Shown in pieces: positions 1 to 11,436 of a stretch of DNA of 32,711 nt. Within the stretch, counting starts at the first letter, position 1. Each line of letters opens with the position of its first letter. Source of the DNA: Bacteroidia bacterium (GTDB lineage Bacteria > Bacteroidota > Bacteroidia > JAIBAJ01); the NCBI GenBank assembly GCA_019695265.1, contig JAIBAJ010000029.1, positions 1-32,711 on the forward strand. The letters run 5' to 3'. Made by a program: the position numbers and the translations under genes. Below the pieces are notes generated by a model. That model was not told the origin of the DNA, did not search any database, and saw only the letters and a list, made by a program, of their open reading frames with translations.

Positions 1-2
1 TA

Positions 3-407
3 ATCGATGTATATAGCCGCTACATTGTTGGCTGGGATATATCCAATACCATGGATGCCGACTGGGTGGTAAGAACACTTAAAATGGCAGTAGAATCACA
101 TGGCAAACCGCAAATCATCAACTCCGATCAAGGAACTCAATTTACAAGTGAAGAATATATCTCCTATGTCAAGTCACTTCAAACTGTTGCCATTTCAATG
201 GATGGAAAAGGAAGAGCAACTGACAATGCTCATATCGAAAGGTTCTTTAGAACTATAAAGCATGACAGGCTATACCTAAATCCAAGTGCAAACGGACACG
301 AACTTTTTAACGAATGTAACACCTTTATTAACTATTACAATGCAAAAAGAACACACTCTTCCATTGGGAAAATCCCACCAGTGGCCTTATTTAAGAGGGC
401 TGCCTAG
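3..407 (+). CDS. IS3-family transposase OrfB, C-terminal part (truncated by window edge)
   Basis: This is the C-terminal half of a DDE integrase-type (rve) transposase. The open frame runs in from the left edge, where IDVYSRYIVGWDIS is readable, so the N-terminus lies outside the window. The second catalytic aspartate is in NSDQGTQF and the catalytic glutamate in NAHIERFFRTIKHD. The end, with FINYYNAKRTHSSIG followed by a P-x-x-A/L-F motif, is typical of IS3/IS150 OrfB proteins. A 24-bp terminal repeat follows about 90 bp downstream, so the intact right end of one insertion sequence is present. OrfA and the left end are out of view, so whether the element is active cannot be judged. The cas operon faces it from the right. 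Confidence 0.9.
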   Translation: MDVYSRYIVGWDISNTMDADWVVRTLKMAVESHGKPQIINSDQGTQFTSEEYISYVKSLQTVAISMDGKGRATDNAHIERFFRTIKHDRLYLNPSANGHELFNECNTFINYYNAKRTHSSIGKIPPVALFKRAA

Positions 408-493
408 TTATCAACCAAAACCTAAAGTTATGAGTCTCCCCCGAACCCCCTCATTGTTAATTATTTAACCTGTTATTTTTAAATTATATATTT

Positions 494-517
494 GTCCAAT
501 CAAACCCGACCACCTCA
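494..517 (+). repeat. Right terminal inverted repeat of the IS3/IS150-type element
   Basis: Read on the minus strand this 24-mer begins TGAGGTGG and ends ATTGGAC. That is the length and TGA...GGAC pattern of IS150-group ends as I remember them (for example TGAACTGC...GTTGGAC). It lies just after the transposase stop, as expected for the right end. The bases GTT at 518-520 could be the target duplication. The left partner is outside the window, so the assignment rests on pattern only. Confidence 0.6.
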
Positions 518-606
518 GTTCTTTCCCATCTTTGCAACAACAGGATTTGCTGAAAGCCTTGCTAATTCAAGGTTTTTATGGGTTTTTAGAACAAAAAAAT
601 TATGGG

Positions 607-650: not shown

Positions 651-1912
<1,262 letters not shown>

Positions 1913-1934: not shown

Positions 1935-2414
1935 CTAAATTTCTGGTGTTTCTCCTTTATTTCTTCTTTGTAATTCTTCAATATCCAACTTGTCCTTGGG
2001 CCGACCGGTATTAAATTTCATTAAGATTAGGTGATCATAGTGCACAATCGGGAGCGTTAAGTCTTGAAATGGTATTTCTTTCCTTTTCTCCCAAGCTTCA
2101 TCAAAGTCGACCAAATTAACATAAGTTAAAAAGTCGATACGATGAGGTACCTTTCCAATTTGGATACTCTGCTTCTGCGTGAAATCGAGTTGATTGGCAT
2201 ATTCAATTAGTTCCCAGTTGTTGCTTAGTGATTTTAAAGCTGTTATAAATTTAGCTTTGTTTTCATTGGAGGGTTCCAACCAAAAATCTATATCTCCGGT
2301 GTAACGTCCATAGCCATAAAAATTAACAGCATAGCCTCCTATTAAAAGAAATGATACTTGATGCCTTAGCAATCGATTAATTACTAATGAAAACAAGGGG
2401 TCTTTAATGTCCAT
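1935..2414 (-). CDS. Pol beta-fold nucleotidyltransferase embedded in the cas operon
   Basis: This 159-residue protein shows the full minimal nucleotidyltransferase signature: a Gly-Gly loop at 26-27 (LLIGGYAVNFYG), the metal-binding pair Asp41-x-Asp43 in TGDIDFWL, and a third acid, Asp94, in HRIDFL. All three carboxylates are present, so it should be catalytically competent. Such proteins (AbiEii/MNT/DUF6036-like) transfer a nucleotide to tRNA, protein or small molecules, often as toxin or antitoxin parts; which applies here is unknown. Its start codon overlaps the cas9 stop by 11 bp and cas1 follows 22 bp later, implying translational coupling and a shared transcript. No HEPN or AbiEi-like partner gene is adjacent. 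It is not a core cas gene that I recognise. Confidence 0.85.
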   Translation of the reverse strand: MDIKDPLFSLVINRLLRHQVSFLLIGGYAVNFYGYGRYTGDIDFWLEPSNENKAKFITALKSLSNNWELIEYANQLDFTQKQSIQIGKVPHRIDFLTYVNLVDFDEAWEKRKEIPFQDLTLPIVHYDHLILMKFNTGRPKDKLDIEELQRRNKGETPEI

Positions 2415-5400
2415 TTGAAGGATTTATAATTATACGGTTTAAAAGTGCCTTTTTCTCTTCTTCGGAAAGGGTTAGATTGTGAGTGGCTTTTCTTAATTCG
2501 TTTAAGTATTCAAACCTTTGTTCGGGCGACAATTCTTTGGTGAATTCTGCATCCTCCACCTCAAGCTCTTCTAAGGTTGAAAATGAAACAGGTAGGTGAT
2601 ATTTTGGATTAATGTCAGAAACTATTATTGATGCTTGATTTCTATAGTTGTAGTTTGGTGAATTATTCTTGAAGGACTTTATTTTGCCAAGACGGTCAAC
2701 AAATAATTTTATGCAGGATTCTTTTATTCTACTTGAACCATTATTCTCAATGGTCGTTTCTAGTTTATTTAGACTACCAAGTTCTCCAAGTTTTGATTTT
2801 GAATCATAAGATAGTATTAAGGAAGCGAGACTGGAAGGCACAAAATGACACTCTTTCTCTGTACTACTGACCATTTTATAAATCCTACCGACCTGTTCAG
2901 ATGAAAGATTGGTAAAATCAATATTGTTAATGTTATCCATTTCTTCCTCTTTTGGAACATAAACCAAATCATTAGGAGAAAGATAAAACAATAGCCTTTC
3001 GCCATCCGCATTTGTTTCTGGAACTTCAGATAATCCTTGCTTCAACCGCTCAATCACAACATGTAGTGGTATTGTTTCGAAGGAGCGCCCTCCTTGATTC
3101 TTTTGATAAATACCAAAGAATAAATTTGTCCCTTTGGCAGCAACAACAAATTTGTCCTTTTTATTTCCTTTTTCACCAACAGCAAATTTGTTTCCCTTTA
3201 ATTCATACGTTCTGACTTTGAAAATTGGTTGATGTTTTTTCCCATTATTTAATTCAATAATATTGCTGTTCATTAATTCAATTCCATCAGGAGAAAACGC
3301 AATTTCAGGGTGTTCAATTATTTTATCCCCTTTAATTTCATCATACTTTTCTAAGTGCTTAATAAGAATTTTTTGGATACCTGTGTCAGTAATGGAGTCA
3401 ATACGTTTTTTGTTAAACGATTCATTAAGGTTTTCACGAGATGCTACATTGTCTTTATCAATATAGTAAACCTCAACCTTTGATATATCTTTATCATTCC
3501 ATTTAAGATTGAGTTCTTTAAAAAATTTCATAACCTTCTTTTTATCTAACCCTTCTCCTATTAATTCCTTAATTTTTGATTTAAGCGATTTGTCTGCAAT
3601 TGATTCCCAATCATCCAGTGCCCCTCCAAAACTTACGGTCTTTTTTAGAAGGAGTGACACTTTGCCATATACTGTATCTTTGTGAAGTGGTTTGCGAACA
3701 GCCCAGTTTGTTCTACCAGTTTGCATTTCAAATCCTTTAGCCTTTTTACCTTCAATTTCTTTCCATTTTAGATAACGATTCTTCGTTTCATTTAAAATTC
3801 GGGTGTTTTGCTTAAATGAAATAATTGTTACGTTTAAATGGTCTTTACAATCTTTCGTTAGGCTAGGCCAAGGTTTATAAAATACCCATTGGTATTTATT
3901 GCTTGAACTATCTTCAAACTTCTTAAAACATAATAGCCGTTTTAAATCTTCCCGCTTTTTTTGCTTTAACTCTTTGGAATTCTTTCCAATTGCATTTTCA
4001 TTGTTTAAATAATTTATATGGCTTCGAGTAGCTAATGCTATAATCAGGGCATCTAATGCATGGTGTCGATGATCAATCCGCTTTTTCTGAAACCCTTTTT
4101 GCAGTTCAAATGGAACATTGGGTATTTCTTTTTGATGCTTTACACTATAAGAAGTAAAGTTCTTGCTTTTTGTTAGATTGTTTAAACGTTCAAAACGAGA
4201 TATAATCAATTCGTTCCACACATCATTCAAACCCCAATCTTGCCTTAGTATTGAAGTTACTCCCCCACTAGTAGATATAACATTTTTCGAAGTAGTTTCT
4301 TTCTCACCTTCTTCTCTAACAATGTTTGAAAGTAGGTTTTTTATTACTTTACTTATATATCTTGTGTCATTCATTTGTCGTTCAACCATCTTCTCTGGAA
4401 TATCTTCTAGCTTAAGCTTTTTCAATTTAGCCTTATTGTTAGAAAAGTACCTAGATATATGATCGGAATATTCATTTTCTGTAAGAATGGTTACTTTTTT
4501 TCCGAAATTCAATGAAACCTGTTGTGAACCAAATTCTTTTATAAACTCCATTCCCAACATATTACCCTTAACTTTATTTACCTCTGCTTCACAGATAACC
4601 TTGTTACTTAAAGAATCATCAAAAAATCGAGACTGTGGAATAATATGTTCAATTTCATATGCTGAAGTAAATAGTTTATTCAAAGGGATTATTTCACGGG
4701 TATATGGTGAAATATAACCCTGTTCTAACCAAAGTTTATATCGAACTAACTCTGCTTGAGTTGGTTGATTACTCTTTTGTATTTTGAGAATATCTTCCGG
4801 TATTTCATTTACAGAATTAATTATACCTTCTTCATAAATCTTTAGTATCTCTTGTTGACTATTAGAATAGGGTCTTACGTTTTCAATATTTTTATCGTTC
4901 TTTAGTTCAGATAAAAGGGCCTTTATCCTAAGGTTTGTTGATTCGTTTTTTAAAATATTCTCTGTTAACCGTTTTCGTTCCGCTGCAGGAAGTTTCATCT
5001 CTCTTCCCAGTTCAATATGAATTTCATTAAAGAATTCCGGTTGACCTTTGCCATATTCTACCCATATATCTTTTACCACACGCAAGGTTTCAGAAACAAT
5101 TTGCTCAACAATAGGATTTCGAAGTGAATTTTGCTTAAATCCGTCCTCTTGTTTTGGATCAAGAAAATGTGATATATCATTGGATGTTTCCCATTTTTTT
5201 ATTTCACCTTCTTCAGAATGTCTGCCATAAACAACATAACAGGCAATATAAAGTGGTAAATCCTTATATGAATCTAAATCATCATTTAGCTTTTCTAACT
5301 CATCAAGCAGTTTAGAATTAATCGTTTTTTTATATTCATCATTCGCTTTGAGATTATTCTCTCTTAATTTTCCCACAATCCCATCTATATTTATCTTATA

Positions 5401-7329
5401 ACTAGGCACCTTTTGCCAAACATCTTCACTTTTCCAGTATTTACCCGCTCGCATTAAAGGCAATAGCTTTTTAACTGCTTTTTCTGAATAGGATCCGTAT
5501 GATTTTTCAAACTGAGGGAACTTTTTGAATTGTTCAACAAAATCCAACTCTAGTTTGTTTTTATTAGCAAAGGTTTTTAAGGCTTTTTCTATCTCGTATT
5601 TATCTTCAACCGAGTAAAGGATATGCCATAAAGAAATTTCCTTCTCAATTTTTAGAAAATCTTTTGGAACATTTTGGCACTTATCTAAACGCCCCATTAT
5701 TAATGATCTAGTTTCATTACATGGGTATCTTTTATCTATTACATAATTCCAACGATGTTTTTTTTCACTAAGATTGAAATAATTAAGTATAGCCTTTTGC
5801 TCTATCTCTTTTCTACCATTAAGCCATTCGAATAATTTAACATACTCATTTTCTGAAGGAATTAATTTGAGAGTAATATCTAATCCGCTTTCTATTTCTA
5901 GGATTTTTAAATTCTTAATCCATTGCCAAAGCCTAAATTCCTGAAATAAAGGATGCGATTTTGCAATACATTTTAAAGGCTGCCAAACCCAATTACCCTC
6001 TTTATCTTTATGAATTCTTCTTTCATATCTACAATTGCTAATTGAAGATTTTTTAGTTTTCAAAGGCCGTTGATAAAAGAGAATATCTTCTATAAATAAA
6101 TAGGCAAAGCCTTTATTTTTTATGTTTCCTTTATGAGATTCATTATTAACATAAAGTTCATTAATACAATCATTGTAAATGGATATGTTACTTAATTCGG
6201 AATGAAATGCGCTTTGAGTTTCTAATATTGCTTTCAGTTCCTGTTTGTAAAACTTCCGTTCTATTGTGCGAATTAATTTCCCTTTTACTTTTTGATTGGG
6301 ATTTTTTAGGAGGGCATCATAAATATATGCACCAACGGTTTTGCCACTTTTCTCAATGGTGTATTCGGTTCGAAATTTTATTTTGCTATATAACTTCCCC
6401 TTCTTTTTGGCATCAATAATTTTCTCAATTTCTTCGAATGTAGGCAAGATTTCTACTTTAATTTTGGCTTTTGTTTCATTTTTACCTTTTGTATATTTTA
6501 TAGTACCATCCGCGTTTAATTCGGTTGTAATTATAAAATCTTTAAATGTGCCTACCCAAGAATCAAAACCGTTTGTTGAGGTTCTGTTTAACTCCAAGCC
6601 ATTTTCTAGAATTATTTTATACCAATAATACCCGTCCTTTTTATCCTTTTCACCTTTTATACAATTAACTACTTTTAAATTCTGCACTTCTGTTATAACA
6701 TCATCTCTTTCACCTTCCTCATCTTCTCCCCTTAGTTGATAATAGCCTCTTTTCTGATTGAAATTTAGAAGTAACCACGCCAGTTCTTCCTTTTCAATTT
6801 TTTCTGAAAGTGCTTTTTTGCGTAAATAATAAAGAGTCCAGTCAAAAGGCACTTTTTTCCCTCCTGATAATAGTTCGGGCTGATTTGTTGAAAAATCAGC
6901 TATCATTTCTTGAAACGACTTTTGAAAAACAAATTCATACCTTTTGGTTTCTTCATTAAACCGATAAGCCAATTTTGGCTCAGTTCCTTCTTTAAATTGT
7001 CCCAAACGCTTGTCAAAATCAATTTGACTTGAATAATGTTCAGGTAAAAAATCCAATACATTTAACACACGATGCAATCGCTCTCGTCTAAGCAATTCTC
7101 TTTCTCTTAAGCGTCGAACACTCCTGTAATGTCTTCTTTCTGCAGTCTGGGAAATAGTATTTCCTTTTTCAAACTCACCCATAATTTCCTGTGACATAGG
7201 AATAATACGGCTGCCCATTCCTAAAATTTTTCCTTTCCAATTCTCGTGAGTAGTTTCAGACGCATTACTTTCAACCAAAGCCCAACCAATACTGTTGGTT
7301 CCTAAATCCAATCCTAAAATTTTCTTCAT
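2404..7329 (-). CDS. cas9: Type II-C CRISPR RNA-guided endonuclease Cas9, unusually long
   Basis: Cas9 cuts DNA matching the crRNA guide using a RuvC and an HNH nuclease. RuvC-I is at the start (ILGLDLGTNSIGWA, Asp8). An Arg-rich bridge helix follows at about 64-90. RuvC-II has Glu773 in EIHIELGREM. The HNH domain has the catalytic His895 in YEIEHIIPQ, followed by SNKVICEAEVNKVKGN. RuvC-III has HHALDAL with Asp1093. All catalytic residues are present. At 1641 residues it is longer than most type II-C Cas9 proteins (roughly 1000-1500) and close to the 1629 of Francisella Cas9. The extra length is in the REC lobe and in a C-terminal part of nearly 550 residues after RuvC-III that should include the PAM-interacting domain. 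Absence of cas4 and csn2, plus the gene order, supports II-C. Confidence 0.98.
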   Translation of the reverse strand: MKKILGLDLGTNSIGWALVESNASETTHENWKGKILGMGSRIIPMSQEIMGEFEKGNTISQTAERRHYRSVRRLRERELLRRERLHRVLNVLDFLPEHYSSQIDFDKRLGQFKEGTEPKLAYRFNEETKRYEFVFQKSFQEMIADFSTNQPELLSGGKKVPFDWTLYYLRKKALSEKIEKEELAWLLLNFNQKRGYYQLRGEDEEGERDDVITEVQNLKVVNCIKGEKDKKDGYYWYKIILENGLELNRTSTNGFDSWVGTFKDFIITTELNADGTIKYTKGKNETKAKIKVEILPTFEEIEKIIDAKKKGKLYSKIKFRTEYTIEKSGKTVGAYIYDALLKNPNQKVKGKLIRTIERKFYKQELKAILETQSAFHSELSNISIYNDCINELYVNNESHKGNIKNKGFAYLFIEDILFYQRPLKTKKSSISNCRYERRIHKDKEGNWVWQPLKCIAKSHPLFQEFRLWQWIKNLKILEIESGLDITLKLIPSENEYVKLFEWLNGRKEIEQKAILNYFNLSEKKHRWNYVIDKRYPCNETRSLIMGRLDKCQNVPKDFLKIEKEISLWHILYSVEDKYEIEKALKTFANKNKLELDFVEQFKKFPQFEKSYGSYSEKAVKKLLPLMRAGKYWKSEDVWQKVPSYKINIDGIVGKLRENNLKANDEYKKTINSKLLDELEKLNDDLDSYKDLPLYIACYVVYGRHSEEGEIKKWETSNDISHFLDPKQEDGFKQNSLRNPIVEQIVSETLRVVKDIWVEYGKGQPEFFNEIHIELGREMKLPAAERKRLTENILKNESTNLRIKALLSELKNDKNIENVRPYSNSQQEILKIYEEGIINSVNEIPEDILKIQKSNQPTQAELVRYKLWLEQGYISPYTREIIPLNKLFTSAYEIEHIIPQSRFFDDSLSNKVICEAEVNKVKGNMLGMEFIKEFGSQQVSLNFGKKVTILTENEYSDHISRYFSNNKAKLKKLKLEDIPEKMVERQMNDTRYISKVIKNLLSNIVREEGEKETTSKNVISTSGGVTSILRQDWGLNDVWNELIISRFERLNNLTKSKNFTSYSVKHQKEIPNVPFELQKGFQKKRIDHRHHALDALIIALATRSHINYLNNENAIGKNSKELKQKKREDLKRLLCFKKFEDSSSNKYQWVFYKPWPSLTKDCKDHLNVTIISFKQNTRILNETKNRYLKWKEIEGKKAKGFEMQTGRTNWAVRKPLHKDTVYGKVSLLLKKTVSFGGALDDWESIADKSLKSKIKELIGEGLDKKKVMKFFKELNLKWNDKDISKVEVYYIDKDNVASRENLNESFNKKRIDSITDTGIQKILIKHLEKYDEIKGDKIIEHPEIAFSPDGIELMNSNIIELNNGKKHQPIFKVRTYELKGNKFAVGEKGNKKDKFVVAAKGTNLFFGIYQKNQGGRSFETIPLHVVIERLKQGLSEVPETNADGERLLFYLSPNDLVYVPKEEEMDNINNIDFTNLSSEQVGRIYKMVSSTEKECHFVPSSLASLILSYDSKSKLGELGSLNKLETTIENNGSSRIKESCIKLFVDRLGKIKSFKNNSPNYNYRNQASIIVSDINPKYHLPVSFSTLEELEVEDAEFTKELSPEQRFEYLNELRKATHNLTLSEEEKKALLNRIIINPSNGH

Positions 7330-7342
7330 TTTTATTTATTTA

Positions 7343-7378
7343 CAAAAGTTATACTATATTTGTCCCATTGAAAGCAAA
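7343..7378 (-). promoter_or_regulatory. Possible cas9 promoter overlapping the tracrRNA 5' end
   Basis: On the minus strand a TTTG (7375-7378) stands about 21 bp before TATAACTTTTG, which resembles the Bacteroidota -7 box TAnnTTTG but with one extra T. The cas9 start codon is about 14 bp further on. If correct, the cas9 promoter lies inside the divergent tracrRNA promoter and anti-repeat. The match is imperfect. Confidence 0.3.
7355..7362 (+). promoter_or_regulatory. tracrRNA -7 promoter element (TATATTTG)
   Basis: TATATTTG is an exact match to the Bacteroidota -7 consensus TAnnTTTG, placed about 6 bp before the anti-repeat on the plus strand. A clear -33 TTTG is not present at the usual distance (only TTTA near 7331), so the promoter may be weak. 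Confidence 0.5.
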
Positions 7379-7441
7379 TCACAATAAGGATTATTCCGTT
7401 GTGAAAACATTTAAGGCGGCGTAAGTCGCCTTTTCTTTTTT
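7368..7441 (+). ncRNA. tracrRNA of the type II-C locus
   Basis: Divergent from cas9. The anti-repeat is at 7368-7384 (TTGAAAGCAAATCACAA), so the missing CRISPR repeat should begin (G)TTGTGATTTGCTTTCAA, which is the usual 5' end of Bacteroidota II-C repeats. A small GGA-TTAT-TCC nexus-like hairpin follows at 7388-7397. The 3' end is an 8-bp hairpin (7413-7420 with 7425-7432, one G-U pair) closed by a GUAA (GNRA) tetraloop and followed by a T-rich run, which doubles as a Rho-independent terminator. The anti-repeat, nexus, terminator order is canonical. Exact 5' and 3' ends are estimated. It would pair with crRNA precursors and be loaded into Cas9. Confidence 0.88.
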
Positions 7442-11143: not shown

Positions 11144-11176
11144 ACCCAAGCTCACCCCTTCTTACCCATCCCCCCC

Positions 11177-11371
11177 GACCCCAGCGGGGTCACATATCGG
11201 TACAAAATCCCAATCCTTTACCCTCTCCTCCCCCCGACCCCAGCGGGGTCACATATCAATACAAAACCCCAATCCCTTTACCCTCTCCTCCCCCCGACCC
11301 CAGCGGGGTCACATATCAATACAAAACCCTAATCCCTTTACCCTCCCCTCCCCCCCGACCCCATCGGGGTC
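11177..11371 (+). repeat. Left REP-like palindrome array (4 units, 59-61 bp apart)
   Basis: Four copies of GACCCCAGCGGGGTC (the last is GACCCCATCGGGGTC) start at 11177, 11236, 11296 and 11357, each followed by ACATATC or AAATATC and then TACAAAA. The spacer is a pyrimidine-rich stretch that is itself repeated. Each unit is a perfect or near-perfect hairpin. The array lies just past the 3' end of the transposase gene and is inverted relative to the array at 12043, as in REP-transposase systems. Confidence 0.85.
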
Positions 11372-11436
11372 AAATATCGATACAAAATCTAGGAAGCATT
11401 TCGGATTTTTCCTTCCTGCATTGAAATTTCATCCTT

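What the first reader, a model, noticed from the sequence alone, without database searches (positions are those of the whole stretch)
1935..2414. Active-looking nucleotidyltransferase built into a type II-C cas operon
Seen: a 159-residue Pol beta-fold protein with the complete GG...DxD...D triad (Asp41, Asp43, Asp94). It starts inside the last codons of cas9 (11-bp overlap) and is followed 22 bp later by cas1. Known: related nucleotidyltransferases (AbiEii, MNT of HEPN-MNT, DUF6036) are toxins or modifiers in defence. Inference: it may be an accessory of this CRISPR system, for example a guard or abortive module, or a modifier of tracrRNA/crRNA ends, because it is translationally coupled with Cas9.
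Basis: partly seen in the sequence, partly recalled or inferred. Interest (0 to 1): 0.7.

Follow-up and report, generated by a model that had tools for sequence, protein, structure and literature searches.

The report
Cas9 fused to a toxin's antidote
In some Bacteroidota the CRISPR nuclease Cas9 carries, as its own tail, the small partner (probable antidote) of a tRNA-toxin-like enzyme encoded by the next gene, which suggests that losing or disabling Cas9 would release a toxin.

Summary
In detail: window 1935-2414 (-) encodes an intact nucleotidyltransferase (NTase) between cas9 and cas1. The last ~86 residues of the adjacent Cas9 are homologous to a small protein that, elsewhere in Bacteroidota, is a separate gene directly upstream of the same NTase. 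A profile built only from standalone partners finds the C-termini of 5 of about 70 Cas9s; all five sit next to the NTase, and no NTase-less Cas9 has the tail. The fused Cas9s fall on four branches of the Cas9 tree. In two loci, DNA similarity starts at the tail and runs through NTase-cas1-cas2, while the Cas9 bodies are only 34% identical. The NTase's closest solved relative by sequence and fold is MenT1, a tRNA-modifying toxin with a 68-aa helical antitoxin encoded upstream. Best reading: a MenAT1-like toxin-antitoxin module whose antitoxin became a Cas9 domain, so Cas9 holds the toxin in check. Genomics and fold are shown; toxicity, neutralisation and the guard role are inferred. The NTase is rare in this slot (4 of 84 loci, plus a relic), and the cas9-cas1 gap takes many cargo genes, so an incidental addiction module remains possible. 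I found no earlier description.

The parts
1935..2414 (-). MenT1-like nucleotidyltransferase (putative toxin), 159 aa, catalytic residues intact
2404..2664 (-). C-terminal tail of Cas9 (about residues 1556-1641), homologous to the standalone partner (putative antitoxin) of this NTase family; profile match at residues 1582-1637
2404..7329 (-). cas9 (1641 aa), whole ORF including the tail
1001..1912 (-). cas1, type II
651..989 (-). cas2
7361..7440 (+). probable tracrRNA: anti-repeat (7369-7385) pairs with the first 17 nt of the repeat, then a terminator-like hairpin and T run
519..542 (+). 3' half of a CRISPR repeat, cut off next to an IS transposase; the rest of the array lies on contig C70

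Best explanation
A two-gene toxin-antitoxin module of the MenAT1 type has been built into a type II-C CRISPR operon by fusing the antitoxin-like small protein to the C-terminus of Cas9. The free NTase would inactivate tRNA 3' ends (or a similar RNA) and stop growth. The helical Cas9 tail binds the NTase and keeps it inactive. If Cas9 is lost, truncated or depleted, the NTase is released and the cell stops growing or dies, which guards the CRISPR system (addiction) and may cause abortive infection when a phage interferes with Cas9. Shown here: the intact NTase, homology of the Cas9 tail to the standalone partners, a one-to-one link of tail and NTase, movement of tail plus NTase between Cas9 lineages, purifying selection, and MenT1 fold and active-site residues. 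Inferred: toxicity, tRNA as target, neutralisation by the tail, and the trigger.
For: (1) Small ORFs of about 60-100 aa lie directly upstream (overlapping or a few nt away) of most partner-clade NTases. (2) Cas9 tail versus L003 partner: BLASTP E 5e-15; versus L002 partner 3e-7. A profile of 31 standalone partners hits the C-termini of only five Cas9s (window, L004, L005, L118, L149), all beside the NTase. (3) Fused Cas9s run 89-97 residues past the start of the conserved D[RW]LG[KN]I end motif; nearly all other Cas9s with a similar motif stop 9-16 past it. (4) Fused Cas9 bodies need four changes on the Cas9 tree. (5) L004 against L005: 79% DNA identity over 1766 nt beginning at the tail and running through NTase-cas1-cas2; bodies 34%, tail 86%, NTase 76%. 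(6) dN/dS 0.08 for tail and 0.07-0.13 for NTase. (7) MenT1 is the best match by sequence profile (E 4.6e-6) and by fold (Z 12.6, 142 aligned, 22% identity). MenA1 is a 68-aa helical antitoxin, mostly encoded upstream, that blocks the MenT1 active site (PMC10435456). (8) In L003 partner and NTase frames are intact while both flanking cas1 copies are broken.
Against: No toxicity or binding data. No sequence similarity of the partner to MenA1 or any solved structure was detected. The family is mostly not CRISPR-linked, and only 4 of 84 class loci have it. Relic L060/L168 shows the module can decay together with the cas genes.
Confidence: 0.58

Rival explanations
1. Incidental addiction module: a dispersed toxin-antitoxin pair repeatedly lands in a permissive slot between cas9 and cas1. 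The fusion to Cas9 is stop-codon loss with continued self-interest of the module; Cas9 merely carries the antitoxin and no immune role exists.
For: The family is found mostly elsewhere, including housekeeping neighbourhoods such as L002 and L177. 28 of 69 cas9-cas1 gaps hold unrelated co-directional cargo.
Against: In the set examined the partner is fused to a larger protein only when that protein is Cas9 (5 of 5; hypergeometric P 1.5e-4), on four Cas9 branches, with the tail kept when the body differs.
Confidence: 0.25
2. Recruited effector: the tail brings the NTase to the Cas9 ribonucleoprotein so that it acts on RNA or DNA ends after target recognition.
For: The fusion predicts physical contact; the catalytic residues are conserved.
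Against: The standalone pairs exist without Cas9, and the tail is homologous to a small upstream partner arranged as in MenAT1, where the partner inhibits.
Confidence: 0.1
3. Guide-RNA or adaptation factor: the NTase trims or tails crRNA or tracrRNA, or helps Cas1-Cas2.
For: Position between cas9 and cas1; overlap with cas9.
Against: Absent from about 95% of type II loci of the same class; close relatives lie in places without CRISPR; nearest fold is a tRNA toxin.
Confidence: 0.04

Closest known systems
MenAT1 (MenT1 toxin, MenA1 antitoxin, Mycobacterium tuberculosis)
   Same: NTase fold with T39, D41, K137 and D152 matching T39, D41, K133 and D144 here; small helical partner protein; partner gene upstream.
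   Different: Here the partner is the C-terminal domain of Cas9 inside a CRISPR operon; NTase 22% identical; partner not detectably similar to MenA1.
AbiE (AbiEi-AbiEii), type IV toxin-antitoxin
   Same: NTase superfamily with the K..R..KD..D C-terminal motif.
   Different: AbiEii score below the Pfam cut-off; partner is small rather than an AbiEi-type DNA-binding regulator.
CreTA (CRISPR-regulated toxin-antitoxin)
   Same: A toxin kept silent by the CRISPR effector, so that losing the effector harms the cell.
   Different: CreTA uses an RNA toxin repressed transcriptionally by type I Cascade (PMC9458426); here a protein antitoxin domain on Cas9 would act directly on a protein toxin.
HEPN-MNT pairs
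   Same: Contain a minimal NTase.
   Different: There the NTase is the antitoxin and a HEPN toxin is present (own knowledge); no HEPN gene is adjacent here.

Membership tests
MenT/AbiEii-like NTase toxins | NTase fold of MenT1 | tested here: met
   VIA-align Z 12.6 to MenT1 over 142 residues; Foldseek E 2e-5
MenT/AbiEii-like NTase toxins | Active-site residues equivalent to MenT1 T39, D41, K137, D152 | tested here: met
   Aligned; invariant; roles in MenT1 from PMC11375011
MenT/AbiEii-like NTase toxins | AbiEii Pfam model above the curated cut-off | tested here: not met
   18.1 bits against 22.5; DUF6036/DUF2204 fit better
MenT/AbiEii-like NTase toxins | Toxicity and tRNA modification | not testable with these tools
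   needs expression and RNA assays
MenAT1-type toxin-antitoxin pair | Small partner gene directly upstream of the NTase | tested here: met
   standalone loci; in the window the partner is the Cas9 tail
MenAT1-type toxin-antitoxin pair | Partner homologous to MenA1 | tested here: inconclusive
   partner profile finds no solved structure
MenAT1-type toxin-antitoxin pair | Partner neutralises the toxin | not testable with these tools
   needs co-expression
Type II-C CRISPR-Cas | cas9-cas1-cas2 with tracrRNA and array | tested here: met
   an extra gene sits between cas9 and cas1, and the array is split by an IS or contig break
HEPN-MNT | Adjacent HEPN gene | tested here: not met
   no HEPN protein adjacent; neighbours are Cas9, Cas1 and Cas2

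The most novel reading that the evidence does not exclude
Cas9 itself is an antitoxin: in several Bacteroidota lineages a protein antitoxin domain has become part of Cas9, so that loss or inhibition of Cas9 unleashes a tRNA-modifying toxin. This would be a protein-level guard of a class 2 CRISPR system.
Probability: 0.5. Interest if true: 0.9.

Novelty: new variant of a known kind. Interest (0 to 1): 0.78.

Why it matters
Guarding of CRISPR systems by toxins is known to me only for RNA-based CreTA in type I systems. A Cas9 that carries an antitoxin domain would show how a class 2 effector can be made costly to lose, and predicts that phage inhibitors or degraders of Cas9 trigger suicide. It also gives a ready test of a long-standing question: how CRISPR systems resist loss. 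The experiment is small (one toxin, one 86-residue tail).

Tried and rejected
Viral contigs: no relative of the NTase. Plasmids: only distant relatives, about 40% identity or less. Rfam: no match in the window. NCBIfam has no model for the NTase. Pfam has no family for the partner. A joint alignment of partners with the fused chain (A3) misplaced the partner rows on the NTase and was not used for folding. The words TCAA=S and AATG=M on the full tail broke the tail or NTase frame; a shortened tail with TCAA=S worked. The order holds only this genome. In a phylum-wide sample no CRISPR-linked NTase was found beyond the window and G228. Paper searches found no description of this fusion; the library is open-access only, and supplementary tables of large CRISPR surveys such as PMC10910872 could not be read. 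HEPN-MNT and guide-RNA processing were considered and ranked low.

Full report
OBSERVATION. The probable tracrRNA lies upstream of cas9 on the plus strand (about 7361-7440): its anti-repeat matches the 47-nt repeat of a short array at the end of contig C70 of the same genome, and half a repeat remains at window 519-542 beside an IS transposase. The NTase matches DUF6036/DUF2204 at threshold and AbiEii below it. D41 and D43 are invariant and D94 nearly so in 43 relatives.

RELATIVES. A scan of bacterial and archaeal genomes gave 57 loci encoding relatives. Only among the closest (54-59% identity: L003, L004, L005) does the gene lie between cas9 and cas1; the others show no cas9, cas1 or cas2 by tblastn in the DNA fetched. 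L002, from the same MAG as L003, is standalone, beside housekeeping genes. A search of 395 genomes of the class found the family in 87 (E <= 1e-12); among the best loci, G392 (L060/L168), G269 (L071/L118), G074 (L073/L101) and G228 (L076/L149) are also cas-linked.

THE PARTNER. Next to the standalone NTases of this clade there is nearly always a small ORF directly upstream. Its consensus is an EPxxxY leader, then S-x-E-E-x-E, LTPxER and a C-terminal IxI motif. It matches no Pfam family. The C-terminus of the window's Cas9 is homologous to it: BLASTP E 5e-15 to the L003 partner, 3e-7 to the L002 partner. A profile built only from 31 standalone partners hits the C-termini of window, L004, L005, L118 and L149 Cas9 and no other Cas9 C-terminus above noise. 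Cas9s of this group end with a D[RW]LG[KN]I-like motif: nearly all non-fused proteins with it stop within about 16 residues of its start, fused ones run 89-97. The fusion is thus end to end: a whole Cas9 plus a whole partner.

EVOLUTION. Cas-linked NTases need four changes on the NTase tree, at least two forced by well-supported branches. Fused Cas9 bodies need four changes on the Cas9 tree, and fused members have non-fused sisters (L149 with L102, L005 with L135) (FastTree only). Between L004 and L005, DNA similarity (79%) starts at the tail and runs through NTase, cas1 and cas2 for 1766 nt, while the Cas9 bodies are 34% identical at protein level; tail 86%, NTase 76%, Cas1 86%. The tail therefore belongs genetically to the NTase cassette, and a Cas9 body change kept it. 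dN/dS between these two loci is 0.08 (tail), 0.07-0.13 (NTase) and 0.05 (cas1). In L003 both flanking cas1 copies are broken but partner and NTase are open; in L060/L168 the NTase is frameshifted and only relics of cas1 remain.

FREQUENCY. 83 of the 395 class genomes have a type II cas1 (84 places). NTase lies in the gap in four (window, G269, G228, G074); G392 is a relic. From NTase density (about 135 copies in 395 genomes; about 3400 genes per genome is my estimate) about 0.01 would be expected. A phylum sample, of which about a dozen loci overlap the class sample, added no further case. The gap itself is bimodal: of 69 loci with both genes readable, 41 have 132 nt or less and 28 have 417-2230 nt, nearly all with co-directional ORFs: REP-transposase-like proteins, AAA ATPases, RhuM, Fic, DUF4143, HIRAN and the NTase. 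So the slot is a general cargo site; the fusion to Cas9 is special to the NTase module. In the set examined the partner is fused to a larger protein only in the five Cas9 cases (P 1.5e-4).

STRUCTURE AND MECHANISM. A chain reading the Cas9 tail through into the NTase (AlphaFold with 42 NTase rows) gives a confident NTase (pLDDT about 96) and three tail helices of low to moderate confidence (52-78). The best structural match is MenT1 (Z 12.6, 142 residues, 22% identity), also first by sequence profile (E 4.6e-6), with T39, D41, K133 and D144 on MenT1's T39, D41, K137 and D152. MenT1 adds CMP to tRNA 3' ends and is blocked by the small helical MenA1, mostly encoded upstream (PMC10435456), which also induces autophosphorylation of T39 (PMC11375011). 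By analogy the NTase is a toxin and the Cas9 tail its antitoxin.

VERDICT. The guard reading is the most likely (about 0.58); an incidental addiction module in a cargo slot is the main rival (0.25). The paper searches found no earlier report, but they cover open-access papers only.

Noticed in passing
L089-L168, cas9-cas1 gaps: In this class the gap between cas9 and cas1 is a recurrent cargo slot: 28 of 69 readable loci have a gap of 417-2230 nt, nearly all with co-directional genes (REP-transposase-like, AAA ATPase, RhuM, Fic, DUF4143, HIRAN, NTase); the other 41 have 132 nt or less.
   Followed up: partly
L116:5189-5569: A Fic-like ORF in the same slot starts with a KEPAEGYGK leader resembling the EPxxxY leader of the NTase partners.
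   Followed up: no
window 1-545 and G000:C70:19312-19636: The CRISPR array appears interrupted: an IS-type transposase and a truncated repeat lie at the contig start, and the remaining repeats are at the end of contig C70.
   Followed up: partly
L005:7286-7301: In-frame stop splits cas9 into 1466 and 235 aa; the second ORF, carrying the tail, restarts 12 nt later in the same frame.
   Followed up: no
window 11145-11384: Four tandem copies of a 60-nt unit with a GACCCCAGCGGGGTC palindrome, REP-like.
   Followed up: no
L003:2331-2555 and 3388-3806: Two broken copies of cas1 flank the intact partner-NTase pair, with 89% identity over 57 nt between them, as if left by duplication or insertion.
   Followed up: partly
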